NCBI GenBank assembly: GCA_012839295.1
Contig: DUNO01000043.1
Location: forward strand, 62,001-126,000
Origin: Clostridiales bacterium
Lineage (GTDB): Bacteria; Bacillota; Clostridia; Lachnospirales; Lachnospiraceae
Length of the DNA: 64,000 nucleotides
Direction: 5' to 3'
Part shown: positions 6,150 through 28,054 of the stretch, piece by piece
Position numbering within the stretch: the first letter of the stretch is position 1
Layout of the letters: the number at the start of each line of letters is the position of its first letter
Translations under genes and position numbers: made by a program
Notes under the pieces: generated by a model
Databases searched by the model: none
What the model saw: the letters and a program-made list of their open reading frames with translations, nothing else
Told to the model about the DNA's origin: nothing

Positions 6150-7133
6150 TTATAGCCCCAGTATCCGACGCTCCATCTCCAAATGCCTTCTGGTGAACAT
6201 TTCCCCGCCGCAATACGCTTCGTCTTCATATTCACTCATCAGATATCCGTCAAAATCCGTATCCTTTAAACATTCCAGTATTTCCTTATATGGAATGCTG
6301 GGCTCTACGCAGTCTTCACTCAGGTAGTGGAATTTTGTATGCATCTCAAAGGTGTAGGGAAGAATCTCCTTCATTTCCTCCAGCAGCTTAGGTAATGCCT
6401 CTTTTGACCTGAACTGTACATATCCATACATTCCCTGCAGCGATTCATTGATTGCCGGATGGGCACCCGCCTCCCTCAATTTAGCAGAAGCTTCTTCTAA
6501 GCTGACACCTGCATATCTCATATCCGCCGCCATCTGAAGATGCTCCTCCTTTACTCCCAATTCCAGGGCACGATCCCATTTTGGCTTATTAGGCGCAATT
6601 GCCAGGAAGCCGAAATCCTGGACAAAACCCAGATGCTTTGATCCGGTTTTCTTGATCACATCCAGGTATTCCTGGATATGGGGAGTGGAAGGGGTATCAG
6701 GATTGTGTATTTCAATTCCAACCTTCACATCAAAAAGTTCCGCATATGGAGCCAGCCTCTCAAAAGCAGCCGGTGTCAGCATATACTGTGCCCGCATTAC
6801 CTTACAGCCCAACCTATTGGCAGCCTTTAGGTCTAAAATTGCACCTGCCAGCAATTCATCATCCGTCAAATTCCTATCATGGAGAATTCCTTTGTCATTG
6901 CTTGCCCCATATCCTTCCGGTCCGATCCCGTATTTTGAACGTAATTCCTCTACCAGGCTCAGGAATTCATCACTTACATTCGGATAGGAAGGGAGCATTT
7001 GTGTTCCTACAATCTCATATCCGGAAGCTCCGGCCTGAGCGGCCCGCTTTACACATTCCTCAAAATCGTACTGATGCCTTGCATATTCCGTTCCATAACT
7101 GAACAGGCTGACGCCTAATTTCATCTTACTCAT
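6150..7133 (-). CDS. C-glycoside deglycosidase alpha subunit-like TIM barrel (DgpC-type), paralogue 1
   Basis: 327-residue xylose-isomerase-like TIM barrel of the sugar phosphate isomerase/epimerase superfamily. Putative metal ligands are E141 (GIEIHNP), D173 (VQDFG), H264 (MHTKFH) and E300 (SEYED), with H143 beside E141 as a likely catalytic base. This pattern matches C-glycoside deglycosidases, which cleave the C-C bond of 3''-oxo-C-glucosides. The gene starts 15 bases after the DUF6379 gene at 7149-7583 and has an AGGAGG site, so the pair is co-translated as expected for an alpha-beta complex. It is close to the paralogue at 8990-9964 (shared DRNLTDDEL / DRDLTDDEL and CKVMRAQY blocks). Substrate is unknown; another 3-keto-sugar lyase or isomerase is possible. 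Confidence 0.75.
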   Translation of the reverse strand: MSKMKLGVSLFSYGTEYARHQYDFEECVKRAAQAGASGYEIVGTQMLPSYPNVSDEFLSLVEELRSKYGIGPEGYGASNDKGILHDRNLTDDELLAGAILDLKAANRLGCKVMRAQYMLTPAAFERLAPYAELFDVKVGIEIHNPDTPSTPHIQEYLDVIKKTGSKHLGFVQDFGFLAIAPNKPKWDRALELGVKEEHLQMAADMRYAGVSLEEASAKLREAGAHPAINESLQGMYGYVQFRSKEALPKLLEEMKEILPYTFEMHTKFHYLSEDCVEPSIPYKEILECLKDTDFDGYLMSEYEDEAYCGGEMFTRRHLEMERRILGL

Positions 7134-7148
7134 CCTATTGACCTCCTC

Positions 7149-7583
7149 CTACTCCATCACGGTAACTTTTACTTTGTCTCCACTGTCCAGCGGCATAAAG
7201 TTGTGCTCTGGCCCAAGCTGCATATATGGTATTCTCAGCATAAGCTTTAATTCCAGCTCATGCTCCCCTACTGGCAGCCCGCCCTTTTTTATCACCCGGA
7301 TCCTGGCAGGCAACACCTGGCTCCAGAACTCCGTAACCGCGTATCTTAACTTGTAAATAGGAAGCTCTTTTCCGTTCAATTCAAAGGTCACTGCCTCCTG
7401 GGGCATCTTTTCTCCATCCACATATACCTCCAAAAGCTCAATATCGGAAAGGAAATGTCCCCTGTAATAAGCAAGCTGTACATCAAATTCAAATCCGTTC
7501 TTCGCCCCATTGATATACAGATTGCGAAAAGACTTCGTCTGAATGATTTCCTCATTAATTTTCATCCTCATTGAAAATCCCAT
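7149..7583 (-). CDS. C-glycoside deglycosidase beta subunit-like protein (DUF6379), paralogue 1
   Basis: 144 residues from the ATG at 7583, chosen because TAGGAGG lies 6 bases upstream; an upstream in-frame ATG at 7622 has no such site. Family features are FRNLYINGAKNGFEFDVQL, YYRGHFLS, a VDGE turn, FELNGKEL and KGGLPVGEHELEL. These recur in all five small proteins of this window. The family is the small beta-sandwich partner (DgpB-type) that completes the active site of the TIM-barrel subunit. It directly precedes the alpha-like gene at 6150-7133. Confidence 0.75.
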   Translation of the reverse strand: MGFSMRMKINEEIIQTKSFRNLYINGAKNGFEFDVQLAYYRGHFLSDIELLEVYVDGEKMPQEAVTFELNGKELPIYKLRYAVTEFWSQVLPARIRVIKKGGLPVGEHELELKLMLRIPYMQLGPEHNFMPLDSGDKVKVTVME

Positions 7584-7661
7584 ACCAATCCTCCTAATTT
7601 CTATTTTTTGTTCTTCCGTCATCCTGACTTCTGATACTGTATTTTCTTATCTAACATATAA

Positions 7662-7707
7662 AAAAGCTACAGGAAACACAACAATTTTCGGGTTTCCTAT
7701 AGCTTCC
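7662..7707 (-). terminator. Rho-independent terminator after the flavodoxin-like gene
   Basis: On the minus strand AAGCTATAGGAAAC pairs with GTTTCCTGTAGCTT and is followed by TTTTTTATATG. It lies between the flavodoxin-like gene and the first beta/alpha pair, so that pair probably has its own promoter or depends on read-through. Confidence 0.75.
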
Positions 7708-7824
7708 TACAACATAAGATCTCCCGATATATCATGCTCATTCCATATTTTATCCAGGATTTTGTCAATAGCCATATCAGTATATTAATAGAATTCAATC
7801 ATCAGAAGACTTCACCATACTATA

Positions 7825-7876
7825 AGGATAGATACATATCTACACTCAGGTTTACCTCACAGCCTAACCCTTACAT
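7825..7876 (+). repeat. Right-end fragment of the 146-bp structured element
   Basis: AGATACATATCTACAC followed by CCTCACAGCCTAACCC matches the right arm and right end of the element at 19451-19596 (CCTCACAGCCTAACCCT). The core and left arm are missing, so this is a truncated copy. Confidence 0.6.
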
Positions 7877-7877
7877 C

Positions 7878-8831
7878 TTAATAAGTCGACTCAAAGCTCC
7901 CTATCCTCTTCATGCCCTCTTCAATCTTATCCTTATTCTTTTCAAACTTAGGCATGAAGTTTTTAACAAAGCCTTGAATTTCCTGGTAGTGCTCCGTTAA
8001 GCCTTCCAGCGTGTTTCTCGCCCTCTTCTGCTCCTTTTCGCTGAAGGTTACTTTCACTTCACCGTTTTCAATGGAGAGCTTTCCATGAATACCGCACATC
8101 GGGCATTGTACATCCGTAGTTTTGCCGAGGGTAATCATGGAGTTATGGCATACGGGACAGACACCTTCCTCACCCATCCACTCAACCTGGTCATAGGGCT
8201 TACCGATGGACTTGGCAAGATGCTCGCCCAGCTTTGCTGTTTTCTCCATCAACTCATCCTCCAGAACCGGATTTACGATGGTTCCCATGTTATAAGCGTC
8301 GATCTGACCTACTGCCTTCATTACGGTTGACATACCGAACATATACATATTAGGTAATCCCAAGGATACCCAGTCCTGCGTCTTTGCCCCACCAACAGAG
8401 ATATAAGCCACATATTTATCTGCTAACACACGGGGATCAAGAAGCTCCTCGGCACCTGCTTTGATACGCTTCTCCTGTTCAGCAAGCGCTGCCGCCCTGT
8501 CATGAGCCGCGCCAAAACGGTCTATGTAGTTCTTAAACTGGCCTGTCGGTGCGATGGAATATACGGGTGCTGCTATGATGATACCATCAGCATTTAAAAA
8601 TTCATTCTCAAGCTCCAGATAATCGTCCTTGATTGTCACACATTTGATCTGCTTGCCCTGATCCCTTAATTTACTGCAGGCACCGCAGCCCGTACAATGG
8701 CTGATTTTCATATTCATAGTGTTAATAAACTTTACTTCCGCACCTGCTTCTTTTGCAGCAAAGAGTGCCTGCTTTACCAGAATATCGCAATTCTTATTTT
8801 TCCTACCAAAGGAAACTCCTAAGACTTTCAT
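7878..8831 (-). CDS. Flavodoxin-like NAD(P)H-dependent FMN reductase with C-terminal zinc ribbon
   Basis: 317 residues. The N-terminal half is a flavodoxin/NADPH-dependent FMN reductase fold: MKVLGVSFGRKNKNC for phosphate binding, a CTGCGAC cysteine cluster near residue 50, and APVYSIAPTGQFKNYIDR as the flavin-site loop. A CPVC-N14-CPMC pair at about 225-247 predicts a zinc ribbon, and the C-terminus is helical and charged. The role is likely electron transfer or reduction of an aromatic or quinone-like substrate. Its place inside the C-glycoside island suggests action on a released aglycone, which is inference. A terminator follows at 7662-7707. Confidence 0.75.
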   Translation of the reverse strand: MKVLGVSFGRKNKNCDILVKQALFAAKEAGAEVKFINTMNMKISHCTGCGACSKLRDQGKQIKCVTIKDDYLELENEFLNADGIIIAAPVYSIAPTGQFKNYIDRFGAAHDRAAALAEQEKRIKAGAEELLDPRVLADKYVAYISVGGAKTQDWVSLGLPNMYMFGMSTVMKAVGQIDAYNMGTIVNPVLEDELMEKTAKLGEHLAKSIGKPYDQVEWMGEEGVCPVCHNSMITLGKTTDVQCPMCGIHGKLSIENGEVKVTFSEKEQKRARNTLEGLTEHYQEIQGFVKNFMPKFEKNKDKIEEGMKRIGSFESTY

Positions 8832-8848
8832 TTTATATCTCCATTCTA

Positions 8849-8916: not shown

Positions 8917-8989
8917 ATAGGAAGCAGATCTACATCCGACTTATATCTTCCGGCTTTATTTAATCCCTGCTTTAATTTAAATCCCAACT

Positions 8990-9964
8990 TTATTTGATTC
9001 CTAAGATTCTGCGCTCCATTTCAATATGCTTCTTTACCATTTCAAAAGCCTGCCCACTGACATGGTTCTCATATTCCGATACGATATAGCCGTCAAACCC
9101 TGCCTCATCAATGATGGGGAGGATCTTATCATAGGGGATGCTCATTTCATTTCCGTCTTCCTTCATGAAATGGAATTTGCCATGGAAATGGAAGCAATAA
9201 GGCATAATCTTCTTTAGCCCTTCAAAATCCGGATTCTTGTTAAAGGTTAAAAATCCGTACATATTAAAGAAGGATGCCATAACCTGGGGATCAGCATTTT
9301 TCTCCAGCAGGAGCTTCTGTGCCTCAGGCATCGGTACATCATCATATTTTAACTGGACCGCATAATCCAACAGCTCTTTATTGGCACCCCGCTCCAGGGC
9401 TCCATAATAACTGTCTACGTTGGGTTTGTCAGCAAAGCAGCCAAAATCCGGTACAAAGCCGATGTATTTTGATCCTGATTTTTCAATAGCCTCAAGATAT
9501 TCCAGCATCTTCGGGGTGCTGGGGGTCTCCGGGTTATGGATTTCAATTCCCACCTTTACATTATAGGCCTCCCCATAGGGGGCAATCCGCACCAGGTTCT
9601 TTGGAGACAGCAGGTATTGGGCACGCATCACCTTACAGCCCATTTTATGGGCACTTTTAATATCCGTAACCGTCCTGGCAAATAGCTCATCATCCGTTAA
9701 GTCCCTGTCAAAGCGCATACCCCGGTCCGTGTTAGCACCGTAAGATACGGGTCTTACCCCGTACTCCGCCGCATACCGGTTGACCTGTCCTAAAAATTCT
9801 TCGCTGATATAAGGATAGGACGGAATCATCTGGGTTGCGACCAGCTCGTAACCGTCAACACCAATTTCTGCACAACGCCGGATACAATCCTCAAAGGTAT
9901 ATTCACCCGACACATACTCTCTGGTAAAACTATACAGGGTGATTCCCAGCTTTACTTTTGTCAT
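8990..9964 (-). CDS. C-glycoside deglycosidase alpha subunit-like TIM barrel (DgpC-type), paralogue 2
   Basis: 324 residues, same fold and length as the paralogue at 6150-7133. All expected metal and catalytic positions are present: E141 and H143 (GIEIHNPETPSTP), D173 (VPDFG), H261 (HFHGKFHF) and E297 (SEYEN). The ribosome site AAAGGAGG precedes the ATG. It follows its beta-like partner by 13 bases. Together with the dehydrogenase upstream it could complete oxidation followed by C-C cleavage of an aromatic C-glucoside. Substrate preference versus the other four pairs cannot be read from the sequence. Confidence 0.78.
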   Translation of the reverse strand: MTKVKLGITLYSFTREYVSGEYTFEDCIRRCAEIGVDGYELVATQMIPSYPYISEEFLGQVNRYAAEYGVRPVSYGANTDRGMRFDRDLTDDELFARTVTDIKSAHKMGCKVMRAQYLLSPKNLVRIAPYGEAYNVKVGIEIHNPETPSTPKMLEYLEAIEKSGSKYIGFVPDFGCFADKPNVDSYYGALERGANKELLDYAVQLKYDDVPMPEAQKLLLEKNADPQVMASFFNMYGFLTFNKNPDFEGLKKIMPYCFHFHGKFHFMKEDGNEMSIPYDKILPIIDEAGFDGYIVSEYENHVSGQAFEMVKKHIEMERRILGIK

Positions 9965-9977
9965 AATGATTCCTCCT

Positions 9978-10418
9978 TTAGTCAGCCAAAGCCATTATTT
10001 TTTGGTCACAGCTATCAATCGGCGTATAACTATGCTCTTCCTTAGCTCCCGGGAGAGGCATGTATGGGCTATGAAGCATTAAGGTCAGCCTGACATCGTG
10101 TTCTCCCGCGGTAAGACCGCCTGGTTTGTGGACCTTGATTGTTGCCGGGGTAATGATATTCCAAAACTCAGAAAATTGGTGCTTCAATTCTACAATGCCA
10201 AATTCCTTCCCATTCAGGCAGAAGGTTATGTCATCCGCATCCGCCTTTTCGCCGTCCACCTCGACAGAAAGCTCATCAATGACGGATAGAAAGTGTCCTC
10301 GATAATATCCTAACCTTACATCAAACTGAAATCCCAGCTTCTGCCCATCCACATAATAATTGCGCAATGTGCCGTCCCTTAGGATATCAGTGAATTTTAA
10401 CTTCATTACCAATCCCAT
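9978..10418 (-). CDS. C-glycoside deglycosidase beta subunit-like protein (DUF6379), paralogue 2
   Basis: 146 residues from ATG 10418, chosen because GAAGGAGGG lies 8 bases upstream; this start (MGLVMKLKF) also matches paralogue 1 (MGFSMRMKI). Family blocks are LRNYYVDGQKLGFQFDVRLG, YYRGHFLS, VEVDGE, FCLNGKEF, KPGGLTAGEHDVRLTL and HSPYMPLPG. It is the predicted small partner of the alpha-like gene 13 bases downstream. Confidence 0.75.
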   Translation of the reverse strand: MGLVMKLKFTDILRDGTLRNYYVDGQKLGFQFDVRLGYYRGHFLSVIDELSVEVDGEKADADDITFCLNGKEFGIVELKHQFSEFWNIITPATIKVHKPGGLTAGEHDVRLTLMLHSPYMPLPGAKEEHSYTPIDSCDQKIMALAD

Positions 10419-10471
10419 GAAAGCGCCCTCCTTCATCTCTATCCATTGCTGTTTCTTGCTGCTATGGCTAT

Positions 10472-11386
10472 TTAGATTACAAACTGCTCCATATATCTCT
10501 TGCTCAGCTTCAGGCTGTTAAGGACTGCCTCCTTAGAGCCTTCAAAGGCTTTATCCTCTACCTCGATGCAGGTATATCCGTCATAGCCGATGTCCGTTAA
10601 AGCGCTGACGTATTTACCCCAGTCTACATCGCCAAGTCCCGGAAGCTTTGGTGACATAAAGCTTAAAGGATATGCCATGATGCCTACGTCATTAAGCTTA
10701 TCGCTGTAAACCTTGATATCCTTATAATGCACATGGAAAATTCTATCCTTAAATTCATAGATGGGCTTAATATAATCGATCATCTGCCATACAAAATGGG
10801 AAGGATCATAGTTTAAGCCGAAGTTTTTGCTCGGGATAAGCTCAAACAGCTGTCTCCAGATGCTTGGTGTCGTTGCCAAATTCTGTCCGCCGGGCCATTG
10901 GTCCCTGCCAAAAAGCATTGGACAATTCTCAATTGCAACCTTAACATTATTCTCTTCTGCCAGCTTAATGATTGGCGGCCAGATCTCCTTGAAAAGCTCA
11001 ATATTTTCTTCCACCGTCTTTGTCTGGTCCCTGCCGATAAAGGTGGTAACCATTCCAATTCCCAGGCGGTTGCTTGCTACGATAAGCTTCTTCAGATGCT
11101 CTATGGCCGCATTTCTTTTCTCCAGGTCCGCATCCATTGCATTTGGATAATATGCCAGGGATGAGATTTCAACCTTCTTCCCTGCACAATAAGCCTTAAT
11201 ATATTCTATTTTCTTATCATCCAGGTCATCCACATTCAGGTGGCTTACACCTGCATAGCGGCGCTCTGCCTTCCCTTGGGGCCAGCAGGCAAGTTCAACG
11301 CAGCCAAAGCCTAATTCGCTGGCAGTGTCAATAACCTCTTCAAATGAACTTTGATCCAAGATCGCACTAACAAACCCTAATTTCAT
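10472..11386 (-). CDS. Sugar phosphate isomerase/epimerase-family TIM barrel
   Basis: 304 residues from ATG 11386 (a GTG at 11407 would add seven residues but has a poor site). It is a canonical xylose-isomerase-like TIM barrel with ELACWPQG near the N-terminus, AIENCPM (metal Glu), YDPSHFVWQ (metal Asp and His), FHVHYKD (His) and CIEVED (last Glu). Unlike the DgpC-type proteins it carries the DPSH signature, so it resembles IolE, hydroxypyruvate-isomerase or ketose 3-epimerase relatives. I infer that it processes a keto-sugar released by C-glycoside cleavage or isomerises an intermediate. It is the first gene of the transcript that continues into beta/alpha pair 2. Confidence 0.75.
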   Translation of the reverse strand: MKLGFVSAILDQSSFEEVIDTASELGFGCVELACWPQGKAERRYAGVSHLNVDDLDDKKIEYIKAYCAGKKVEISSLAYYPNAMDADLEKRNAAIEHLKKLIVASNRLGIGMVTTFIGRDQTKTVEENIELFKEIWPPIIKLAEENNVKVAIENCPMLFGRDQWPGGQNLATTPSIWRQLFELIPSKNFGLNYDPSHFVWQMIDYIKPIYEFKDRIFHVHYKDIKVYSDKLNDVGIMAYPLSFMSPKLPGLGDVDWGKYVSALTDIGYDGYTCIEVEDKAFEGSKEAVLNSLKLSKRYMEQFVI

Positions 11387-11388
11387 AC

Positions 11389-11412
11389 TTACACCCGTGC
11401 CTTTCACTTTTT
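11389..11412 (-). promoter_or_regulatory. Conserved leader motif before TIM-barrel gene
   Basis: On the minus strand GTGAAAGGCACGGGTGTAA lies just before the ATG. Nearly the same string (TTGAAAGGCGCGGGTGTAA) precedes the alpha-like gene at 22890-23864. It may act as an unusual extended ribosome site or a regulator or sRNA target. Confidence 0.4.
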
Positions 11413-11620: not shown

Positions 11621-12736
11621 TTATTTATTTAAGAATACTTCCTTACCGGTACGGTCGGATTCGTAGATAGCTTCCAGAATCTGTGTTACCACAAATGCCT
11701 GCTCCGGCTTTACAAGGGGCTCACCATCATTGATGACCGCATCCAGCCACTGCTTTGCTTCCATGTAGCCAGGCTCTCCTGCGCCGCCTTCAAAATATGC
11801 AATATTTCCTGCAGAAGAGATCTTCTCCTCTGTCAATAGTCCATGATGTCCACGGTTGTAGATCAGCTGATTTACCGGATAGCTCATACCGGATTGTACT
11901 TCAGCACCGGCCTTGGTACCGCACAGGGTTGTGGAGGCTTCCTTGGACTCGGATACATTGAGGGCCCAGGAGGCTTCCAGATAGATTGCTGCACCGTTCT
12001 CCATCTTAATCATACCAAAGGCAGAATCCTCTACCTCATAGGTCTTGGGATCCCAAGGCCCAAACATATTGCCTTCCGTAGCCTGGGGTAAGCTGCCCAG
12101 CTTATAGAATACGGAGCCGGTTACGCTGACAGGCTTGTAATTGTCCATCATCCATAGGGTAATATCGAGTGCATGGGTGCCGATATCAATCAGCGGCCCG
12201 CCGCCCTGTAACGCCTTGTTGGGGAATACGCCCCAGGTAGGAACTGCCCTTCTTCTTACGGCATGTGCCTTGGCATAGTAGATATCACCTAACTCACCTG
12301 CCTCACAAGCCTTGTGGAGGGATTGGATCTCATCCCTGAACCTGTTCTGGTAGCCAATGGTGAATTTCTTTCCGCTCTTTTTCCAAGCTTCGATCATCTT
12401 CCTGGCATCCTCTGAGTTATGTGCCATGGGCTTCTCGCATAATACATGCTTGCCTGCCTCAAAAGCGGCTACAGTAGCCGGACAGTGAACCACGTTCGGT
12501 GTCAGCACATGGATTATATCCAGATCCTTATCCTTATACATCTCAAGGTAATCCGTATACACCTTTGCATCTGCTGTTCCATATTCCTTTGCTGCCTTTT
12601 CAGCTCTTTCCGGAACAATGTCACAGAATGCTGTCATCACGCATTTGTCTGCCAATTTCTTGAGTGCCGGCATATGCTTGTTATTAGCAATACCTCCGCA
12701 ACCTACAATACCGATCTGTAATTTGCCGTCCTTCAT
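11621..12736 (-). CDS. Gfo/Idh/MocA-family oxidoreductase, DgpA-type C-glycoside 3-dehydrogenase candidate
   Basis: 371 residues. The N-terminal Rossmann fold carries GIVGCGGIANNKHMPAL; the family catalytic Lys is in EKPMAH (about residue 98), followed by IGYQNRFR and the GGGPLIDIGTHALD block with the Asp/His pair. It is roughly three-quarters identical by eye to the gene at 26957-28054, which sits directly before a beta/alpha pair exactly as dgpA does before dgpBC. The expected role is NAD-dependent oxidation of the sugar C3 hydroxyl, which activates the C-glycosidic bond for cleavage. It has a strong AGGAGG site. Confidence 0.78.
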   Translation of the reverse strand: MKDGKLQIGIVGCGGIANNKHMPALKKLADKCVMTAFCDIVPERAEKAAKEYGTADAKVYTDYLEMYKDKDLDIIHVLTPNVVHCPATVAAFEAGKHVLCEKPMAHNSEDARKMIEAWKKSGKKFTIGYQNRFRDEIQSLHKACEAGELGDIYYAKAHAVRRRAVPTWGVFPNKALQGGGPLIDIGTHALDITLWMMDNYKPVSVTGSVFYKLGSLPQATEGNMFGPWDPKTYEVEDSAFGMIKMENGAAIYLEASWALNVSESKEASTTLCGTKAGAEVQSGMSYPVNQLIYNRGHHGLLTEEKISSAGNIAYFEGGAGEPGYMEAKQWLDAVINDGEPLVKPEQAFVVTQILEAIYESDRTGKEVFLNK

Positions 12737-12994: not shown

Positions 12995-14041
12995 CTACTC
13001 AAACTGGATTGCCGTATTTGTCTCAGCTGATTTCCTCACAGCGTCCATAAGCCTTAATACCCTTCTCACCTCATCAGGTTTAATGGCCAGCTCCTCCTTC
13101 CCATTCAGGGCATTATAGTAATTCTTGAAGAATTCCATATGGGAGGTTTCTACCTTAGGCAGCTCTTCCTCATATAAGAGGCCCGGTGCCGGAGGTCCAA
13201 AGGACCTGGTTGGGCCGGAGGCGGTCATGGTGATCTTGCCCGGCACGTTTTCCAGAAGGTGCTTCGTCCTTACGATCCTGCCCTTGCCTTCAAAGCCTTC
13301 AATAAACGCACTTCCCTTCTTGCCGCCGATGAACCATTCCCTGGTAGGGTTTAAGTAATAGGTTCCCAATTCAATCTCAGCTGTTACCTTATTTTTAAAC
13401 TTAAGAATAATTTTAAAGTAATCATCCACTTCCTTATTAATGACATTCTGCACATCAGCAAAAACCGTAGCAATCTCACTGTCCACCATGTTCAGCATCT
13501 GGTCAATCAAATGAACTCCCCAGTCATACAGCATTCCGCCGCCCATTTCTTTATAAATGTGCCAGTCATGCATATTGCCGTTAACACCATAAAGCTGGGA
13601 TTTAATAAGATACATATCCCCTACTGCCCGGCTGTCATATACCTCCTTCATAATACGGTAGTCCTTGTCCCATCTGCGCTGGTGATGGATTGTAAATAAG
13701 ACATTGTATTCCTTGGCCGCCTTTACCATCTCATCAAATTCCCCAACCGACATGGCCGCCGGCTTCTCACAGATAATATTTTTGCCAGCCCTTGCCGCAT
13801 CTACTGTCACTTCCTTATGCAGCGGGTTTGGTACCGATATTATCACCGTATTAATCTCCTCTACCTTCAGCAGATCATGGTAGTCCGCGAAGGTAAGCAC
13901 CCCGGGCTTCGCATCCTCAAGCTGCTGGGGGTTCGTATCACACACCGCTATAATCTGTGCTCCCTCATATTTCTCCAGTAGGTTCTCATGCTCATGGCCC
14001 ATGAAACCATATCCGATAATACCAAGTTTAATCTTTGTCAT
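12995..14041 (-). CDS. Gfo/Idh/MocA-family oxidoreductase
   Basis: 348 residues with Rossmann motif GIIGYGFMGHEH, ICEKPAAMS (catalytic Lys), a HHQRRWDKDY block and MLYDWGVHLIDQ with the Asp/His pair. It is only distantly related to the other two dehydrogenases of the window. It begins 8 bases after the end of the degenerate alpha-like gene, so it is part of the operon that starts at 15262. It may oxidise a different glycoside or re-reduce the released 3-keto sugar. Confidence 0.75.
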   Translation of the reverse strand: MTKIKLGIIGYGFMGHEHENLLEKYEGAQIIAVCDTNPQQLEDAKPGVLTFADYHDLLKVEEINTVIISVPNPLHKEVTVDAARAGKNIICEKPAAMSVGEFDEMVKAAKEYNVLFTIHHQRRWDKDYRIMKEVYDSRAVGDMYLIKSQLYGVNGNMHDWHIYKEMGGGMLYDWGVHLIDQMLNMVDSEIATVFADVQNVINKEVDDYFKIILKFKNKVTAEIELGTYYLNPTREWFIGGKKGSAFIEGFEGKGRIVRTKHLLENVPGKITMTASGPTRSFGPPAPGLLYEEELPKVETSHMEFFKNYYNALNGKEELAIKPDEVRRVLRLMDAVRKSAETNTAIQFE

Positions 14042-14829: not shown

Positions 14830-14845
14830 GCCATGCTTCACCCCT

Positions 14846-19339: not shown

Positions 19340-19450
19340 ACCTTTCCCTCCATTTTTTCTTTGCCAAAAGAGCACAAACCGGACAGCTGTGCTCTTTTCA
19401 CTCTATTTTTCAAATTTTATGATTCGCCCAGCAAGGGCTTCTTTACACTA

Positions 19451-21084: not shown

Positions 21085-22827
21085 CTACCGGTAAATATAA
21101 TCCCCATCCTGGTATTTCGGAGGTATCACCGGAACCTGAAGGAAGGAATCATACTTCCCGCCGGTATGTATGATGTGTTGCCCTTTATTATCAGCCTCCC
21201 ATTGTAAAGGTTCAAACCATCCCTCACGGATATAGCGCCCACAGATCTGGACCCGGATCTGCTGTCCCTTATGCCAGATACGGCTTGTAGGCCAGATCTC
21301 AATATCCACGGGAACAATCTCCCCCGGTGACAGCTTCTCGCTGCAGGTATGGGCCTGAACCGGCTGGAAATCCGTTGAAAGCTTCTCATCTAATTTACGG
21401 CGGGAAACCCTCATCTTACCCCAGGCTCCGGGATGGGCCTCACCAAAGATGGTGATGGGCAGCCATTCGCCCTTCGTGCTTAATTTTTGGACATTAATGA
21501 ATAGATCCATATCATCATGCCCATCCGCCTCCACCCAAAGGCGGAGCTTTATAAAGCCTGTCAGCTCTGTATCCTCTTCAAAGCGGTAATCAAAGCATAC
21601 CTCTCCAGTTGCCCCCTCATAGGCAGTTTTGCTTTCCAGGGCAACCGGCTCCTTCTTCATGGACAGGTCAGAGGCGTCCAGATATAATTTTTCATATCTT
21701 GTCCTCTTAAGGGGGAAGGCATCCTCCGGCCGGTCTGTCTGATAGTCAAAATCATAGGCATCCTGAACCTCGATCCGAACCCTGGGGGTCAACTCCCAGC
21801 CATTTCTCTCCAGCTTTAAGTACCGGTCAAAGAATTTTTCCAGGTCAGTGAGGTATTTATTGCTATAAGCGTCGGGCCACTCAAAGTTACGGTGGGCGCG
21901 CAGCCATTTTTTAGAGGATCTTATTTTCCGGAAGCCATTGATGGAGCCGCGAAGATGGAAATGGTTCCAGCAGGCCGTTACATAGACCGGTATTTTTATT
22001 GCACTCCAGTTCGGATCCTTATCCTTCCAATATGCACAGTCAATGAAGGGATATTTCTGGGCATTCAAAACCATATTGTCGACATAATTATATCCGACTG
22101 CATCACGAAGCACCATGGATACGAAGGCATGGGCTGGAATTCCTCCTTCATAGAGGGATTCCCGGTACATATCACTGGTTCCTTCCCAGGGAGCAATACA
22201 TGCCAGGTGGGGAGGGCATTGGGAGGCGATTCTCCATTGGGTCATAGCCACACAGGAGTTACCGGACAGCGCAACCCTTCCGTTACACCAGTCCTGCTCT
22301 GCCGCCCATTCAATAAAATCATATCCATCCCTGCCATCCTGGGAACCGAAGCAGATAAAATCACCCTCTGAATGGCCGATACCACGGGGATCCACATTAG
22401 CTACCGCATAGCCCCTCCGGCACCAATAGCCCGGATCTGCACTTTCAAACTTGGACATATTCGATACGGTCTGGGGCGGAACACCCATGATCTGCCACTC
22501 ACTCTGCCCTTCAAAGGGGCGCTTGCCATAGAAGCTCCAGGATACGATCAGGGGTACCGGACCTGAACCAACCGGCCTGTAGATATCTACATATATCTTA
22601 ACCCCGTCACGCATGGTTACAGCCACGTCCTGCATGCACTCAATGCCTTCCTCTGCTATATAGGTCCTGGGGTTTAACGGCGGCAGGTATTTATAAAGCA
22701 TCCTTGTATCAGGATCCATGGCCTCCAGCTCCTCCTTTGTCGCCGGCCGGATCATTTCCGTAAAGACTACGTCCACCATCTCCCCGCACATTTCAACCTG
22801 TTTTGTTTTTCTTTTTAACTCAGACAT
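21085..22827 (-). CDS. CocE/NonD-family hydrolase (X-Pro dipeptidyl-peptidase S15 type)
   Basis: 580 residues. DVAVTMRDGVKIYVDIYRP opens the catalytic domain, NVDPRGIGHSEGDF follows, and the nucleophile elbow is LSGNSCVAMTQW (Ser near 206). The C-terminal third (from about 380) is a jelly-roll domain with RIEVQDAYDFD and PGEIVPVDIEIWPTS. The family includes cocaine esterase, acylases and PepX-like peptidases. It lacks a signal peptide. It is placed between beta/alpha pair 4 and the flavoprotein gene, so it probably hydrolyses an ester or amide in the substrates of this island. The ribosome site AAGGAG is good. Confidence 0.82.
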   Translation of the reverse strand: MSELKRKTKQVEMCGEMVDVVFTEMIRPATKEELEAMDPDTRMLYKYLPPLNPRTYIAEEGIECMQDVAVTMRDGVKIYVDIYRPVGSGPVPLIVSWSFYGKRPFEGQSEWQIMGVPPQTVSNMSKFESADPGYWCRRGYAVANVDPRGIGHSEGDFICFGSQDGRDGYDFIEWAAEQDWCNGRVALSGNSCVAMTQWRIASQCPPHLACIAPWEGTSDMYRESLYEGGIPAHAFVSMVLRDAVGYNYVDNMVLNAQKYPFIDCAYWKDKDPNWSAIKIPVYVTACWNHFHLRGSINGFRKIRSSKKWLRAHRNFEWPDAYSNKYLTDLEKFFDRYLKLERNGWELTPRVRIEVQDAYDFDYQTDRPEDAFPLKRTRYEKLYLDASDLSMKKEPVALESKTAYEGATGEVCFDYRFEEDTELTGFIKLRLWVEADGHDDMDLFINVQKLSTKGEWLPITIFGEAHPGAWGKMRVSRRKLDEKLSTDFQPVQAHTCSEKLSPGEIVPVDIEIWPTSRIWHKGQQIRVQICGRYIREGWFEPLQWEADNKGQHIIHTGGKYDSFLQVPVIPPKYQDGDYIYR

Positions 22828-22889: not shown

Positions 22890-23864
22890 TTACGCTTCTA
22901 ATAATTTTGTATTCAAAGCAATAAAATGTCTTAGCTGTTCCTCAGAATCAACTGTATAATCAAAATGATGTCCCTCATACTCGCTGGCAATGTAGCCCTT
23001 GTAGCCCAGGTCACGGAGTTCCTTCATCAGCTCTTCAAAGGGGATGCAGGGATCATGGTCATCATTGTCCAAATAATAGAATTTGCCATGGATATAGAAG
23101 CAGCAGTCGATGGTATCCTTGATCTGGCTGATCTTAGCCGGAGCCGAGAACTTGCCGAACATTTCCAGGGCAGTATGCTTCTCAATCTCATTGAAATCCC
23201 CCTGCTCCGCCGCAGCTATCTTAAGGCTGGTGTCCTCCTTCTTCTGATGGAGGGCAATAATCTCCTCTAACTTATCCGGCCTGCAGCCAAACTCAAGAGC
23301 CTGGTTTAAATACAGCTGGTGGGGCATGGTCTGATAAATGCTAAAGTCGATCACATAGCCCAGATAGCCCTTTCCTTCCCCCTTCATAATCTCAAAATAT
23401 TCCTTCCATACCTCAACCTCCGGGTGATGGGGATGATGCATCTCAATGGTCAGCTTCATATCCAGCTGCTTGCAGTAAGGTATCATTTTTCGGAAAATGG
23501 CCGGTGAGATGGCATGCTGGGTACGGACCATCTGAAACCCTGCCTTTTTCGCATAAATCATATCATTGACCGTATACTGGATGATCTCCTCCTCCGTCAA
23601 GTCCCTGTCAGAGCGGATTCCCATATCAATATAGGCACTCCAGCATATGGGCTCCAGCTCATATTTGTCTAATAAGCCTTTCAGTTCATTGATCCATTCA
23701 TCAGAAAGATATGGATATTCCGGTGCCATTTGAGCCGGAATAATCTCCACTCCCTTATAGCCCATGTCTCTTGCTTTTCTTAATACGCCTTCCAGATCCA
23801 GCTTTTCATGGATGTATTCCGTGGAAAAGCTATACAGCGTGATTCCAAATTTAATATCACTCAT
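22890..23864 (-). CDS. C-glycoside deglycosidase alpha subunit-like TIM barrel (DgpC-type), paralogue 4
   Basis: 324 residues. All key positions are present: E141 and H143 (TIEMHHPHHP), D173 (VIDFS), H259 (YIHGKFYY) and E295 (SEYEGHH). It is closest to the degenerate paralogue 3: both have IYAKKAGF, PFCWN/PICWS and EGEG-like blocks, so paralogue 3 looks like a shortened relative of this one. It is preceded by its beta-like partner after a 95-base gap that holds the conserved leader motif. Confidence 0.75.
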   Translation of the reverse strand: MSDIKFGITLYSFSTEYIHEKLDLEGVLRKARDMGYKGVEIIPAQMAPEYPYLSDEWINELKGLLDKYELEPICWSAYIDMGIRSDRDLTEEEIIQYTVNDMIYAKKAGFQMVRTQHAISPAIFRKMIPYCKQLDMKLTIEMHHPHHPEVEVWKEYFEIMKGEGKGYLGYVIDFSIYQTMPHQLYLNQALEFGCRPDKLEEIIALHQKKEDTSLKIAAAEQGDFNEIEKHTALEMFGKFSAPAKISQIKDTIDCCFYIHGKFYYLDNDDHDPCIPFEELMKELRDLGYKGYIASEYEGHHFDYTVDSEEQLRHFIALNTKLLEA

Positions 23865-23959: not shown

Positions 23960-24376
23960 TTATTCCGCAACCAGAGTCTCCGTAACATTGCTGTCCAGTA
24001 CCAGATATTCTCCGAAATAGCCGGTATAGGGAACCCGGTGCTTCAGAAAAGCATTCACCGTATGCTTACCGCTGCTGATGCCCCCTGCTTTCCTTACCTG
24101 TATAGTCGCCTTATCACGTACAAACCAGTATTCCTTAAAACAGTCCTTAAGCTCATCCAACAAGAACTGCTTATTATTTAAGCAGAAGTAAACATCCTCC
24201 TTGGGTATCTCTACCCCGTCCACCTGGAAGCTTAATGCTTCGATACAGCTTAAAAAGGTTCCCCTGTAGGATGGGTATTTGATCTTGAATTCGTATCCAA
24301 TTACCGCATCCTTAACAGTTATGTTTTTGATCTCATCCTTACAGATAAATATTTTGTTATATGCCTGAAAATCCAT
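23960..24376 (-). CDS. C-glycoside deglycosidase beta subunit-like protein (DUF6379), paralogue 4
   Basis: 138 residues. Blocks are DAVIGYEFKIKYPSYRGTFLS (split here as IGYEFKIKY and YRGTFLSCIEAL), FCLNNKQF, KEYWFVRDKATIQV, GGISSGKHTVNAFL and HRVPYTGYFG. It is the predicted partner of alpha-like paralogue 4. The start has AGGAAAGG upstream. Upstream lie a 32-bp tandem repeat and a terminator hairpin, so it begins a new transcript or lies behind an attenuator. Confidence 0.72.
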   Translation of the reverse strand: MDFQAYNKIFICKDEIKNITVKDAVIGYEFKIKYPSYRGTFLSCIEALSFQVDGVEIPKEDVYFCLNNKQFLLDELKDCFKEYWFVRDKATIQVRKAGGISSGKHTVNAFLKHRVPYTGYFGEYLVLDSNVTETLVAE

Positions 24377-24540: not shown

Positions 24541-24542
24541 AA

Positions 24543-24738: not shown

Positions 24739-25260
24739 TTATTTGAACCTTTTCGTTGCAATCCGGCCAAAGGGAACTTCTCTTTCCTGTACCGGGGCAG
24801 CGGGATAACCCAGGATTACTCCAGATACCGGTGTAAAGCCTTCCGGAAGCCCTAATTCCTTCAGTAAATCCTGATCCGCATTCAGGGCAGCGATGCATCC
24901 ATAGATGTACACGCTTCCAAGTCCAAGCTCCGTTGCTGCCAGACACATATTCTCAATCACACAGCCTGCATTTGCATAAGCCACGGGATTCACTGCATTG
25001 CTGGATACAACAATAAAGGTCGGAGCCCCATATAACGGGTTTGCATCCGGCTTCTGGACAAACTCCGCCGCTGATACCCGGAACCTCTTAAGAAAATCCG
25101 CATTCTGTATCACAGTAAAATGCATCGATTCAAATTTAGCTCCTCCAATCGGTGACGCATAGCCTGCACGCAGGATCGTTTCCAGCTCGCTCTCTTTGAT
25201 CTGTTCCTCTGTAAATGCACGGACTGACTGCCGTTTCAAAATTGTTTCCATCATCTCCAT
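24739..25260 (-). CDS. Nitroreductase-family flavoprotein
   Basis: 173 residues from ATG 25260, chosen because AAAGGAG lies 7 bases upstream; a start at 25305 has no site. Family marks are ILKRQSVRAFT near the N-terminus (FMN phosphate contact), RAGYASPIGGAKFESMHF, the CVIENMCLAATELGLGSVYI helix and VSGVILGYPA near the end. FMN-dependent NAD(P)H oxidoreductases of this type reduce nitro groups, enones and quinones. It is the last gene of the operon that begins with the DgpA-type gene at 28054, suggesting a role in aglycone reduction. Confidence 0.85.
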   Translation of the reverse strand: MEMMETILKRQSVRAFTEEQIKESELETILRAGYASPIGGAKFESMHFTVIQNADFLKRFRVSAAEFVQKPDANPLYGAPTFIVVSSNAVNPVAYANAGCVIENMCLAATELGLGSVYIYGCIAALNADQDLLKELGLPEGFTPVSGVILGYPAAPVQEREVPFGRIATKRFK

Positions 25261-25342
25261 TGCAATTCTCCTTTCTTCACTTCCATACTTCTGCCACATC
25301 TCCAAATAATTGCAAAGCCCAATGTCTATCGCAATTTTTCAA

Positions 25343-26386
25343 TTACTTCCCAATCAATCTGCTTAGCATCTCATGATGTCTTCTTACCTGCTCCACCTCA
25401 TCAATCAGCTTATCCTCGCCTGCATCCTGGCAGTACCTCTGACCCTCGAATTCGGAATTGATGTAGCCGTCAAAGCCGCATTCCTTCAGATATTTGATCG
25501 GTGTCGCATAATCAATGGCCTTATCCTCATATTGCCCCGGCTTTCCAGCCACTTCCGTCATATGATAGAATTTTCCGTGGATGCTTACGATATAAGGAAC
25601 GATATCCTTAATGTCCTCCGGCTTTGCGCAGGATTCCTTAATTAAGATGGCTCCCAGTGTCATAGCATTCAGGCCATGGCCCGGATATTTCCCGTCCAGC
25701 AGCCTGATAACCTCATCCGTATTGCTCTCCTCACCCTGCTCAAGGATGAAATCAACCATCTCCGGATTATAGTGGCGCTTAAAATAATCAATGGCAAGAT
25801 CCGTTGGCGAGTGCTGGAAGATTCCAAAATCAGGAACCAGCCCGACATGCTTTGTGCCTGTCTTTTCAACCAGCTCAATAATCTGGTCTACCATTCTTGG
25901 ATCCATGATGGGATCCTTTACCGATTGCTTCTGTCCCGGCTTGATCGGCAGCGGGAAATGGATTTCCTTGCCGATTCTGACATTGTACTTCTCCGCTGTC
26001 GGAATGGCCATCTCAATTACCTCGGTAGGCACCAGGCACAGGCACCTGACATTCTCAAAGCCCATTCTGGCCGCAATCTTGATATCATTCTTTAAACGCT
26101 CCGCCGCTTCCCCATGAGTCATGACATGGTCGCGGAACTGATGGACATCCAGATATACGTCCATTGTTACGGCCTTCATCCCATATCTGGCCATTTCATT
26201 ATTCCAATCAAAGTAAAACTGCTCGGATGGGAAGGGATAATCCCGTATAATGGCCTCATCAATGATCTCGATACCATCCGTTTTCAAATTATCATGAACC
26301 TCCCGGATCATATCCTTCCAGTTCATTTTTCCAAAAAATTGTGTTTGTTGATAGCTATAAAGCGATACGCCTCTTTTTATTCCCAT
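25343..26386 (-). CDS. C-glycoside deglycosidase alpha subunit-like TIM barrel (DgpC-type), paralogue 5
   Basis: 347 residues, the longest of the five. Key positions are E141 and H143 (KEIHFP), D186 (VPDFG), H270 (IHGKFYH) and E312 (SEFEG). An insertion of about 12 residues after the EIHFP loop (IKPGQKQSVKDP) and a longer C-terminal tail set it apart. The neighbours upstream are a beta-like gene and a DgpA-type dehydrogenase, so this triplet (dehydrogenase, beta, alpha) has the same order as dgpA-dgpB-dgpC. It is the best candidate for a complete C-glycoside cleaving unit. Confidence 0.78.
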   Translation of the reverse strand: MGIKRGVSLYSYQQTQFFGKMNWKDMIREVHDNLKTDGIEIIDEAIIRDYPFPSEQFYFDWNNEMARYGMKAVTMDVYLDVHQFRDHVMTHGEAAERLKNDIKIAARMGFENVRCLCLVPTEVIEMAIPTAEKYNVRIGKEIHFPLPIKPGQKQSVKDPIMDPRMVDQIIELVEKTGTKHVGLVPDFGIFQHSPTDLAIDYFKRHYNPEMVDFILEQGEESNTDEVIRLLDGKYPGHGLNAMTLGAILIKESCAKPEDIKDIVPYIVSIHGKFYHMTEVAGKPGQYEDKAIDYATPIKYLKECGFDGYINSEFEGQRYCQDAGEDKLIDEVEQVRRHHEMLSRLIGK

Positions 26387-26483
26387 AGCAACCTCCCTGA
26401 TACCCTCCGGGTATCTTACTTAAGAGAGCAGAAAGCAAATCCCGCCTTCTGCCAGATGAAATTTTAACAAGTTCCAGACCAGC

Positions 26484-26939
26484 TTATTCCTGCAGCTCAA
26501 GCTCAAAGGTACAGATAGTGCCTGTCTTACCGGCTCCTGAGCCCTTTCCCGGTACGGGAGGATTCTTTACCCACTCTTCATCCCAGGGCATATATCCATA
26601 TTGGGCCAGGATTGACTGCTGAAGTCCGATCACATGCTTTCCGGAGGAAAGGCCTCCCTCCTTCTCTACATATACATAGCCTTCATCATCATAATTCCAG
26701 TGCTCCCAGACGCAGGTCTTAATCTCGTCAAAGGATCTCGGCTCTTTTCCATTGATTTCAAATTTCTGCTTACTAACCGGATATTCCGTCCCATCACAGG
26801 TGATATAATAGCCATTATGCAGGGATAAAAAGCATCCCCGGTAATCCGCGATGCGGACAGCAAACTTAAAGCCTACAACCTTACCGCCTTCTGTTACATT
26901 TTCCAGACTGTCTTTTCTAATCAGATACTGATCAAACAT
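26484..26939 (-). CDS. C-glycoside deglycosidase beta subunit-like protein (DUF6379), paralogue 5
   Basis: 151 residues, the most divergent of the five small proteins. Shared marks are VVGFKFAVRI, DYRGCFLSLHNGY, FEINGKEP, VWEHWNYDDEGYVYVEKEGG, LSSGKHVIGL and the C-terminal PWDEEWV stretch unique to this copy. GAAGGAGGTGG precedes the start. It sits 17 bases after the DgpA-type gene and 97 bases before the alpha-like gene. Confidence 0.72.
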   Translation of the reverse strand: MFDQYLIRKDSLENVTEGGKVVGFKFAVRIADYRGCFLSLHNGYYITCDGTEYPVSKQKFEINGKEPRSFDEIKTCVWEHWNYDDEGYVYVEKEGGLSSGKHVIGLQQSILAQYGYMPWDEEWVKNPPVPGKGSGAGKTGTICTFELELQE

Positions 26940-26956
26940 AACGTTCCACCTCCTTC

Positions 26957-28054
26957 TTAATTTAACTTGATCTCCTTGCCCTCTTCTGCCGATTTATAAA
27001 TCGCCTCCAGAATCTGGGTAACTACAAATGCCTGCTCCGGCTTTACCAGGGGCTCCGTATCATTGATGATCGCATCCAGCCACTGGTTCGCCTCACGGAT
27101 ACCTTCCGCAGAAGCCCCGCCTGCAAAGAAGTCCACATGGGCCTTTGGTGAAATCGTTGACTGCATCTGCTGGTCATTTTCAATAAAATTATAGATCAAC
27201 TCGTCCTGGGCAAAGCTTCCGCCATGGTTGATATGTGCGCCGGATTCTGTTCCGCAAAGGGTTGTTGATGCTTCCTTGGATTCAAGGACATTTAAATTCC
27301 AGGAGGCTTCTACGAATACGGTTGCCCCATTTTCCATCTTTACAAAGCCGAAGGCGGAATCCTCTACCTCAAAGGTCTCGGGATCCCATGGGCCGAATAC
27401 ATTACCTTCCACCTTATCCCTCATTTTATTGAACACGGAGCCGGTTACGGATACAGGCTTGTAATTATCCATCATCCACAGGGTGATATCAAGGGCATGG
27501 GTACCGATATCGATCAATGGCCCGCCGCCCTGTAACGCCTTGTTGGGGAATACACCCCAGGTAGGAACCGCCCTGCGGCGCAGCGCGTGTGCCTTCGCAA
27601 AATAGATATCACCAAGCTTTCCGTTTGCGCAGGCCTTATGTAATGCCGTAGTATCATCACGGAAACGGTTCTGGTAACCGATGGTGAACTTTTTGCCGGA
27701 AGCCTTCCAGGCATCCATCATCTTCTGGGCATCCGAGGTACAATGAGCCATGGGCTTTTCACAAATAACATGCTTTCCTGCCTGGAAAGCTGCCACTGTA
27801 ATCGGGCAATGGGAAACATTCGGGGTACATACATGAACCACCTCAATGTCCTCATTCTTCATAAACTCGTTATAATCGGTGTATACCTTTGCATCCGGGA
27901 TCCCGTATTCTTTTGCAGCCTTGACAGCCCTTTCCTCCACGATATCGCAGAAGGCAACAATCTCGTTTTTCTCACTGCAAGCCTTTAAAGAGGGCAGATG
28001 CTTCTGATTCGCAATACCACCGCATCCAACAATTCCAATTTTAACCTTTCTCAT
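26957..28054 (-). CDS. Gfo/Idh/MocA-family oxidoreductase, DgpA-type C-glycoside 3-dehydrogenase candidate
   Basis: 365 residues. KIGIVGCGGIANQKHLPSLK is the nucleotide-binding loop, ICEKPMAHC holds the catalytic Lys, IGYQNRFRDD follows, and GGGPLIDIGTHALDITLWMM carries the Asp/His pair (quoted as the first 20 residues). It is a close paralogue of the gene at 11621-12736. It heads an operon with beta-like, alpha-like and nitroreductase genes. The family role is NAD-dependent oxidation of a sugar hydroxyl; the puerarin enzyme DgpA has the same position in its cluster. GGAGG precedes the start. Confidence 0.8.
   Translation of the reverse strand: MRKVKIGIVGCGGIANQKHLPSLKACSEKNEIVAFCDIVEERAVKAAKEYGIPDAKVYTDYNEFMKNEDIEVVHVCTPNVSHCPITVAAFQAGKHVICEKPMAHCTSDAQKMMDAWKASGKKFTIGYQNRFRDDTTALHKACANGKLGDIYFAKAHALRRRAVPTWGVFPNKALQGGGPLIDIGTHALDITLWMMDNYKPVSVTGSVFNKMRDKVEGNVFGPWDPETFEVEDSAFGFVKMENGATVFVEASWNLNVLESKEASTTLCGTESGAHINHGGSFAQDELIYNFIENDQQMQSTISPKAHVDFFAGGASAEGIREANQWLDAIINDTEPLVKPEQAFVVTQILEAIYKSAEEGKEIKLN

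What the first reader, a model, noticed from the sequence alone, without database searches (positions are those of the whole stretch)
6150..28054. C-glycoside catabolic island with five beta/alpha deglycosidase-like pairs and three dehydrogenases
Five DUF6379-type small proteins are each encoded just before a DgpC-like TIM barrel, all on one strand, together with two DgpA-type dehydrogenases and a third Gfo/Idh enzyme. Known clusters (puerarin dgp, dfg and carB/carC type) carry one or two such pairs. The pairs differ in loops and partners, which suggests several C-glycoside substrates handled in one locus. This is the most likely undescribed system in the window.
Basis: partly seen in the sequence, partly recalled or inferred. 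Interest (0 to 1): 0.92.

Follow-up and report, generated by a model that had tools for sequence, protein, structure and literature searches.

The report
Five-pair plant-glycoside breakdown gene island
A bacterium of the family Lachnospiraceae carries, in one stretch of DNA, four intact-looking sets and one dead-looking set of the known two-part enzymes that strip sugar from very stable plant compounds, together with likely helper enzymes; it is an unusually dense version of a known kind of system.

Summary
Five CGDB (PF19906) small proteins each precede a DgpC-like TIM barrel on the minus strand, with three Gfo/Idh dehydrogenases.

Four pairs (1, 2, 4, 5) keep all eight catalytic positions I tested: five metal ligands, the His base and its Glu helper in alpha, and Tyr39 in beta. 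Pair 3 does not. Its 263-aa alpha lost the base, three of five metal ligands and the lid region, and its beta has Trp at Tyr39. So there are four competent-looking lyases plus one dead-looking pair.

The pairs are not recent duplicates. The island also holds a possible keto-glucal hydratase, a flavone-reductase homologue, a vinylphenol-reductase-like flavoprotein, two esterases and an AraC-GH39 regulator. Much of the gene order recurs in two relatives, but the five-pair state was seen only here.

Most likely it is an oxidation/beta-elimination pathway for several flavonoid C- and O-glycosides. Genomes with many such pairs are published (Catenibacillus decagia, PMC11170127), and 5 of 80 other loci have 3-4 pairs. 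This is a new variant of a known kind, with a testable pseudoenzyme question. No activity was tested.

The parts
6150..7133 (-). alpha subunit T1 (TIM-barrel lyase subunit, 327 aa); closest of six solved references: W974-1 DgpC2 (56%), PuCGD alpha (44%)
   Evidence: Pfam AP_endonuc_2; heptad EHDHKEE intact; identities
7149..7622 (-). beta subunit B1 (157 aa), Tyr39 equivalent present
   Evidence: CGDB E 3.2e-35; YYRG context
7878..8831 (-). flavone reductase (FLR) homologue, 317 aa
   Evidence: only PDB match at E up to 1e-5 is 7d38 = FLR, E 6.9e-46; FMN_red
8990..9964 (-). alpha subunit T2 (324 aa), PuCGD/DgpC-like (53-54%), 78% to a Catenibacillus scindens protein
   Evidence: heptad intact
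9978..10436 (-). beta subunit B2 (152 aa), Tyr39 present
   Evidence: CGDB E 1.1e-37; DgpB E 3.9e-46
10472..11407 (-). TX: unpaired AP_endonuc_2/IolE-like barrel, candidate 2-hydroxy-3-keto-glucal hydratase
   Evidence: weak partial match to 8ro4 hydratase, E 7.2e-6, third after 2zds and IolE; homologue present in 43 of 80 other CGD loci
11621..12736 (-). GFO1, DgpA-type glycoside 3-dehydrogenase
   Evidence: 7xr9 DgpA E 5.3e-167
12995..14041 (-). GFO2, DgpA2-type Gfo/Idh dehydrogenase
   Evidence: 9m37 P581a DgpA2 (isoorientin complex) E 4.4e-128
14050..14841 (-). alpha-like T3 (263 aa), degenerate: E147 and D179 kept; base His149 is Glu; H269, K271, E305 and E307 not found; lid region deleted; predicted to fold as an eight-stranded barrel
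14846..15262 (-). beta-like B3 (138 aa), Trp at the Tyr39 position
   Evidence: CGDB E 3.2e-32; W
15473..17890 (-). AraC-type regulator fused to a GH39 domain (805 aa)
   Evidence: Pfam; presumed acid/base position is Asp
18020..19375 (-). type-B carboxylesterase
   Evidence: COesterase E 4.9e-100
19606..21051 (-). flavoprotein ene-reductase, vinylphenol-reductase/flavocytochrome c-like (481 aa)
   Evidence: NF053717 E 9.2e-85, below its cut-off; fumarate reductase PDB matches
21085..22827 (-). CocE/NonD-type hydrolase (S15 + PepX_C)
   Evidence: TIGR00976 over cut-off; Pfam
22890..23864 (-). alpha subunit T4 (324 aa), in a clade holding none of the six solved references; best PDB match PuCGD alpha (34%)
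   Evidence: heptad intact
23960..24376 (-). beta subunit B4 (138 aa), Tyr39 present
   Evidence: CGDB E 2.1e-36
24739..25305 (-). nitroreductase-family flavoprotein
   Evidence: Pfam E 3.1e-20
25343..26386 (-). alpha subunit T5 (347 aa); best PDB match Deinococcus aerius CGD 8qvc (35%)
   Evidence: heptad intact
26484..26939 (-). beta subunit B5 (151 aa), Tyr39 present
   Evidence: CGDB E 4.1e-37
26957..28054 (-). GFO3, DgpA-type glycoside 3-dehydrogenase
   Evidence: 7xr9 DgpA E 1.9e-159

Best explanation
The stretch 6150-28054 is a catabolic island for plant polyphenol glucosides that works by oxidation and beta-elimination, not hydrolysis. DgpA-type dehydrogenases (GFO1, GFO3, and DgpA2-type GFO2) oxidise C3 of the glucose. 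Four alpha/beta lyases (T1B1, T2B2, T4B4, T5B5), each with a metal site, a His base and a Tyr39 in beta, cut the C-C or C-O bond and release the aglycone and 2-hydroxy-3-keto-glucal. TX probably hydrates that to 3-oxo-glucose, which a DgpA-type enzyme reduces to glucose, regenerating NAD+, so the sugar steps are redox-neutral. The FLR homologue, the vinylphenol-reductase-like flavoprotein and the esterases then process the aglycone and acyl groups. The four lyases most likely differ in aglycone or attachment position. T3B3 is a non-catalytic relic or pseudoenzyme pair. Shown here: gene content, residues, phylogeny, synteny. Inferred: all activities, the substrate split, TX's role and the regulator's role.
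For: Family matches. The seven tested alpha positions are intact in T1, T2, T4 and T5, and Tyr39 in B1, B2, B4 and B5. Changing these residues reduced or abolished activity in published mutants (PMC8563793, parts 1-4 of 8 read; PMC10628242 passages). Homologues near CGD pairs in 80 other loci: TX in 43, GFO1-type in 49, GFO2-type in 33, FLR-type in 13, FAD-type in 8, COE-type in 6. Much of the gene order recurs in G228 (same genus) and G110 (same family); shared proteins other than T3 and B3 are 75-96% identical. COE, FLR and FAD homologues stand beside a T5-type and a T1-type alpha in the Clostridiales MAG RUG534 (L142), and FLR and COE homologues beside a T5-type pair in Clostridium caldaquaticum (L100).
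Against: No activity data. TX's hydratase match is weak (E 7.2e-6, over residues 143-284 only), it is also IolE-like below cut-off, and its single-sequence model was unusable (pLDDT 51). None of the genes of the island is a transporter by Pfam. Two PuCGE residues given a role by simulation, Asn144 and Tyr303 of alpha, are not conserved (Asn in T1 and T2 only, Tyr303 in none of the five), though Tyr303 is also absent from the other five solved references. The T4 clade has no characterised member known to me, so C-glycoside specificity there is extrapolated. Eight gaps of 129-362 bp argue against one transcript. The five-pair state was seen only in this genome: G228 lacks T2-B2 at that place.
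Confidence: 0.78

Rival explanations
1. The lyases mainly serve O-glucosides, or mixed and acylated glycosides; C-C cleavage is a side activity of some pairs.
For: PuCGE cleaves 3-keto-phlorizin as well as C-glucosides (PMC10628242 passages); DgpA oxidises O-glucosides (PMC11239390 passages); two esterases lie in the island; T4 is only 34% identical to its nearest solved alpha.
Against: Tyr39 of beta, specifically needed for C-glycosides (Y39F keeps O- but loses C-activity), is kept in B1, B2, B4 and B5. Natural Phe variants exist elsewhere (3 of 119 beta rows), so the position can vary.
Confidence: 0.35
2. Pair 3 (T3/B3) is a decaying pseudogene remnant with no role.
For: T3 lost the base, three metal ligands and the lid region; its end branch is 2.08 against 0.35 for its sister. 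Beyond T3 itself, the best match in 61 relatives was T4 of the same island at 39% (G110 not among them), and a genome-contig scan with T3 found nothing.
Against: Both frames are open, with gaps of 4 and 8 bp to neighbours. Neutral decay to 60% and 50% identity gave means of 4.1 and 5.0 stops in 176 codons, with none in 7 and 2 of 300 runs. The best of five models keeps eight strands. B3 changed less than T3 (0.57 against 0.25 for its sister) and still matches CGDB.
Confidence: 0.5
3. The multiple pairs are redundant copies for one substrate (gene dosage).
For: The four intact pairs share the same catalytic residues.
Against: Intact pairs share only 24-48% alpha identity and fall in separate clades shared with other bacteria.
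Confidence: 0.12
4. The barrels are ordinary sugar isomerases/epimerases unrelated to deglycosylation.
For: Generic Pfam AP_endonuc_2 annotation.
Against: The best PDB matches of T2, T4 and T5 are CGD alpha subunits (T1 was compared with six reference chains only), each of T1-T5 has a CGDB partner, and the catalytic heptad is intact in four.
Confidence: 0.02

Closest known systems
dgp operon of Dorea sp. strain PUE (DgpA, DgpB, DgpC = PuCGD/PuCGE)
   Same: DgpA-type dehydrogenase plus beta/alpha lyase with the same catalytic residues; T2 and B2 are 53% identical to DgpC and DgpB; operon described as oxidation, elimination, hydration, reduction (PMC10628242 passages)
   Different: one pair there; here four intact-looking pairs plus one degenerate pair, three dehydrogenases, and FLR, flavoprotein reductase and esterase genes in the same island
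dfgABCDE of Eubacterium cellulosolvens (EuCGD)
   Same: alpha/beta lyase and Gfo/Idh oxidase (DfgE) in one cluster
   Different: T5 and B5 are only 27% and 30% identical to it; the other genes differ
Catenibacillus decagia and C. scindens genomes (PMC11170127)
   Same: Lachnospiraceae with many DgpA (11) and dgpBC (6) homologues plus flavone reductase in C. decagia; among 80 fetched loci the nearest relative of T2B2 is in C. scindens (78/74%, L130)
   Different: the abstract reports the dgpA genes as located apart from dgpBC, and no five-pair island appears in the parts I read; our assembly (6.36 Mb, 82 contigs) is not that one (6.64 Mb, 36 contigs)
Agrobacterium tumefaciens GlycDH/AtOGE/AtHYD/Gfo operon (PMC10628242 passages)
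   Same: same four-step logic, with a putative hydratase annotated, like TX, as a sugar isomerase
   Different: eliminase unrelated in sequence and without a beta subunit, inactive on the C-glucosides tested
P581a and W974-1 DgpA/B/C proteins (9m37, 9m3a, 9m3b, 9m3d)
   Same: GFO2 is closest to P581a DgpA2; T1B1 closest to W974-1 DgpB2/C2 among the references
   Different: known to me only from PDB names and titles; no paper found

Membership tests
CGD / C-glycoside eliminase (DgpBC type), pairs 1, 2, 4, 5 | beta subunit of the CGDB family adjacent to an alpha TIM barrel | tested here: met
CGD / C-glycoside eliminase (DgpBC type), pairs 1, 2, 4, 5 | metal ligands E147 D179 H269 K271 E305 and base H149 with E307 (AgCGD2 numbering) | tested here: met
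   EHDHKEE in T1, T2, T4, T5
CGD / C-glycoside eliminase (DgpBC type), pairs 1, 2, 4, 5 | Tyr39 of beta (needed for C-glycoside but not O-glycoside cleavage) | tested here: met
   Y in B1, B2, B4, B5
CGD / C-glycoside eliminase (DgpBC type), pairs 1, 2, 4, 5 | cleavage of a 3-oxo-C-glucoside | not testable with these tools
   needs assay
CGD / C-glycoside eliminase (DgpBC type), pair 3 | metal site and His base | tested here: not met
   base is Glu; H269, K271, E305 and E307 not found, the last columns aligning differently; E147 and D179 kept
CGD / C-glycoside eliminase (DgpBC type), pair 3 | Tyr39 of beta | tested here: not met
   Trp in B3
CGD / C-glycoside eliminase (DgpBC type), pair 3 | common descent with CGD subunits | tested here: met
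   B3 CGDB E 3.2e-32; T3 and B3 both group with one pair of G110; T3 model's best PDB match is DgpB-C
DgpA-type glycoside 3-dehydrogenase | closest to DgpA/DgpA2 among solved Gfo/Idh proteins | tested here: met
DgpA-type glycoside 3-dehydrogenase | oxidises C3 of a glucoside with 3-oxo-glucose as acceptor | not testable with these tools
   needs assay
2-hydroxy-3-keto-glucal hydratase (TX) | sequence kinship to a characterised hydratase | tested here: inconclusive
   8ro4 E 7.2e-6, third best after 2zds and IolE; model too poor to compare folds
Flavone reductase FLR | closest solved relative is FLR, over most of the length | tested here: met
   7d38 E 6.9e-46, residues 1-289 of 317
Flavone reductase FLR | substrate residues W149, H271, I275 and C-terminal tail | not tested

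The most novel reading that the evidence does not exclude
T3/B3 is a selected pseudoenzyme pair. Both subunits lost catalytic residues while keeping their folds and their place next to the AraC-GH39 regulator, a place that also holds in G110 (probably Anaerobium acetethylicum), where the base His is Tyr. It would bind glycoside or lyase subunits as a sensor, chaperone or assembly modulator of the multi-lyase island.
Probability: 0.2. Interest if true: 0.65.

Novelty: new variant of a known kind. Interest (0 to 1): 0.47.

Why it matters
Enzymatic cleavage of the aryl C-glucoside bond is rare, and few such lyases are characterised. One locus with four divergent intact-looking pairs, three dehydrogenases and a likely aglycone reductase would allow a direct test of how beta and alpha subunits set aglycone and position specificity. 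It also brings in the T4 clade (25 rows, with Lachnospiraceae, Oscillospiraceae and Clostridiaceae among the titles, none of the six solved references in it), and a natural pair that lost the residues His149 and Tyr39, whose roles rest on mutants.

Tried and rejected
A one-sequence structure of TX gave pLDDT 51 and was not used. A genome-contig scan with T3 found no relative. A look for shared words in ten intergenic stretches found only short ones, plus a hairpin repeat that is not island-specific. Promoter and terminator scans of 6000-25900 were at shuffle level. Rfam found nothing in the island. Assignment to the published Catenibacillus decagia assembly was rejected on size and contig number. 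Whether G228 holds T3/B3 could not be settled: its contigs break inside GFO2 and about 250 bp after the regulator, and neither T3 nor the rest of GFO2 was found elsewhere in it. No dN/dS for T3 was made for lack of a close orthologue; the neutral simulation ignores indels and takes one relative as ancestor. In the larger quick tree T3 groups with L083 instead (support 92); the G110 pair was not in that set, and T3 is a long branch there too. The 80 loci are the best of 410 hits to query A3, of at most 21 kb, some cut short by contig ends, so they are not an unbiased census. Cluster densities in other family genomes were read by eye from the table, in which at most 11 candidates per genome were scored. 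PMC12940152 held none of my terms.
Full report
WHAT IS THERE. On the minus strand of 6150-28054, in transcription order, lie GFO3, B5, T5, nitroreductase, B4, T4, S15 hydrolase, FAD reductase, carboxylesterase, AraC-GH39, B3, T3, GFO2, GFO1, TX, B2, T2, FLR homologue, B1, T1. All five B proteins match Pfam CGDB with E between 3.2e-32 and 1.1e-37. T1, T2, T4 and T5 pass the AP_endonuc_2 cut-off; T3 does not. TX is a sixth barrel without a beta partner. Gaps within pairs are 4-97 bp; eight other gaps of 129-362 bp suggest several transcription units rather than one.

HOW UNUSUAL. The window lies at G000:C48:62001-126000 of a 6.36 Mb, 82-contig assembly that has 14 CGDB matches, one of them on the same contig about 6.5 kb outside the window. 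CGDB matched in 36 of 396 family genomes at least 90% complete (35 over the cut-off), 3 of 34 genus genomes, 4 of 398 phylum genomes and 0 of 14 controls, each count except the controls including our own genome. One other family genome, G067, also has 14, but scattered. In the table our five betas in 19.8 kb are the densest group; next are G110 C69 (4 in 20.4 kb) and G447 C27 (3 in 8.2 kb), read by eye. Among 80 loci of at most 21 kb fetched by similarity to the alpha subunits (80 of 410 confirmed hits), 55 have one beta, 20 two, 4 three (L085, L087, L124, L125) and 1 four (L086). So multi-pair arrays are a continuum, and this one is its upper end as far as I saw.

FOUR INTACT-LOOKING PAIRS AND ONE DEAD-LOOKING PAIR. 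Published mutants mark E147, D179, H269, K271 and E305 (metal), H149 (base) and E307 in alpha (AgCGD2 numbering; the E307 change halved PuCGD but nearly abolished MiCGD activity; PMC8563793 parts 1-4 of 8). In beta, changing Tyr39 to Phe removes C-glycoside but not O-glycoside cleavage (PMC10628242 passages). The seven alpha residues are intact in 50 of 55 rows of one set and in 119 of 124 rows of the other. Six reference chains and the window's five are in both sets, and some genomes occur in both. Of the five exceptions in each set, three are short or incomplete pieces. The rest are T3 (both sets), a G110 protein with H149Y (first set) and L099_12527 with CSDEKME (second set). Tyr39 is Tyr in 50 of 52 and in 115 of 119 beta rows; B3 alone has Trp, three have Phe and one fragment a gap. 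Two further PuCGE positions, Asn144 and Tyr303, vary both here and among the references. Hence pairs 1, 2, 4 and 5 look competent. Pair 3 lost catalytic residues in both subunits.

PAIR 3. Separate alpha and beta trees put T3 and B3 next to the two halves of one G110 pair, support 100/96 and 100/99, within the T4/B4 clade. The G110 pair sits in the same place, between GFO2 and the regulator, is full length, has Tyr for the base His and keeps Tyr39. T3 lacks the lid region and the strand-7 ligands as well. Against simple decay: both frames are open, and neutral simulation to 60% and 50% identity left no stop in 7 and 2 of 300 runs over 176 codons. AlphaFold2 on the five window barrels gives pLDDT 80.7 and pTM 0.81 with eight strands for the best of five models (the others 67.8-78.0), and the best structural match is DgpB-C. 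For decay: a very long branch, and no other close copy in 61 relatives or in 396 family genomes searched with the G110 protein, where the next best matches are T4-type proteins at 49-50%. I leave relic against pseudoenzyme open, leaning slightly to no role.

ORIGIN OF THE PAIRS. T1 and T2 lie in separate subclades of the superclade that holds PuCGD (T2 with Catenibacillus scindens, 78%). T4 belongs to a 25-row clade with none of the six solved references (Blautia parvula, Parasporobacterium, Clostridium caldaquaticum and others). T5 lies in another clade; its best solved match is Deinococcus CGD. The fused 8qrz chain was not in the trees. Intact pairs share 24-48% alpha identity. They look like old lineages brought together, not recent tandem copies.

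SYNTENY. The small genes at 4280-6094 and the pair T2-B2 have no room at their places there, and two FeS/flavin NADH oxidoreductase genes stand between the FAD reductase and the esterase. I saw no orthologues of T1-B1, T2-B2 or the esterase in the G110 stretches fetched. Shared proteins are 75-96% identical, T3 (40%) and B3 (56%) apart. In our window the FeS genes are missing from that gap, and a copy of a hairpin repeat stands in it.

PATHWAY. GFO1 and GFO3 are closest to DgpA, GFO2 to P581a DgpA2. DgpA works ping-pong, regenerating NAD+ with 3-oxo-glucose (PMC11239390 passages). The lyase product is 2-hydroxy-3-keto-glucal; Bitter et al. report preliminary evidence for a hydratase, annotated as a sugar isomerase, in an analogous operon. 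TX is the candidate here by weak homology and by its presence in 43 of 80 CGD loci (no background rate was measured). The 7878-8831 protein matches only flavone reductase in the PDB at E up to 1e-5, and 19606-21051 is vinylphenol-reductase-like, below cut-off. These fit removal of sugar followed by aglycone reduction, as seen physiologically in Catenibacillus (PMC11170127 passages and sections 14, 17). All activities are inferred.

NOVELTY. Multi-copy dgpA/dgpBC genomes are in print (PMC11170127). My full-text searches (open-licence PMC only; of the papers listed I opened nine, in part) showed me no five-pair island and no pseudo-CGD pair, but subscription papers and supplements were not searched. 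I file it as a new variant of a known kind.

Noticed in passing
window 4035-4179, 19451-19595 (inverted copies), partial 7836-7883: Palindromic hairpin repeat of about 145 nt with 40 places in the own genome among the 40 of 116 candidates that were scored; in 41 genomes searched it was found only in G000 and G228. No Rfam match. The 19451 copy sits where G228 carries two FeS oxidoreductase genes.
   Followed up: partly
window 15473-17890 and 1576-4014 (AraC-GH39 fusions), 29-1552 (GH39 alone); homologues in L030-L034: A homologue of the AraC-GH39 protein stands in five of the six other CGD loci of this genome that I fetched. In 58 homologues the presumed GH39 nucleophile column is Glu in 54 but the presumed acid/base column is Glu in only 8 (catalytic positions recalled, not looked up), so the domain may be a glycoside sensor.
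   Followed up: partly
L129:9531-9995, L115:7839-8297, L097:9529-9972: Three beta subunits carry a natural Phe at Tyr39, and their alphas form one clade; by the published Y39F result they may be O-glycoside lyases.
   Followed up: no
L099:12527-13621: Full-length alpha homologue with the catalytic heptad changed to CSDEKME, a second candidate dead subunit.
   Followed up: no
L031:5654-7078 (G000:C34), L036:5956-7374 and L037:6389-7927 (G110:C69): Open frames that match both the beta and the alpha profile, so natural fusions; a fused CGD of Microbacterium testaceum, 8qrz, is in the PDB.
   Followed up: partly
window 24415-24535: Tandem repeat of 32-nt period, three copies, upstream of B4.
   Followed up: no
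window 42018-42067: Sodium riboswitch aptamer (RF03071, 44.8 bits), outside the finding.
   Followed up: no
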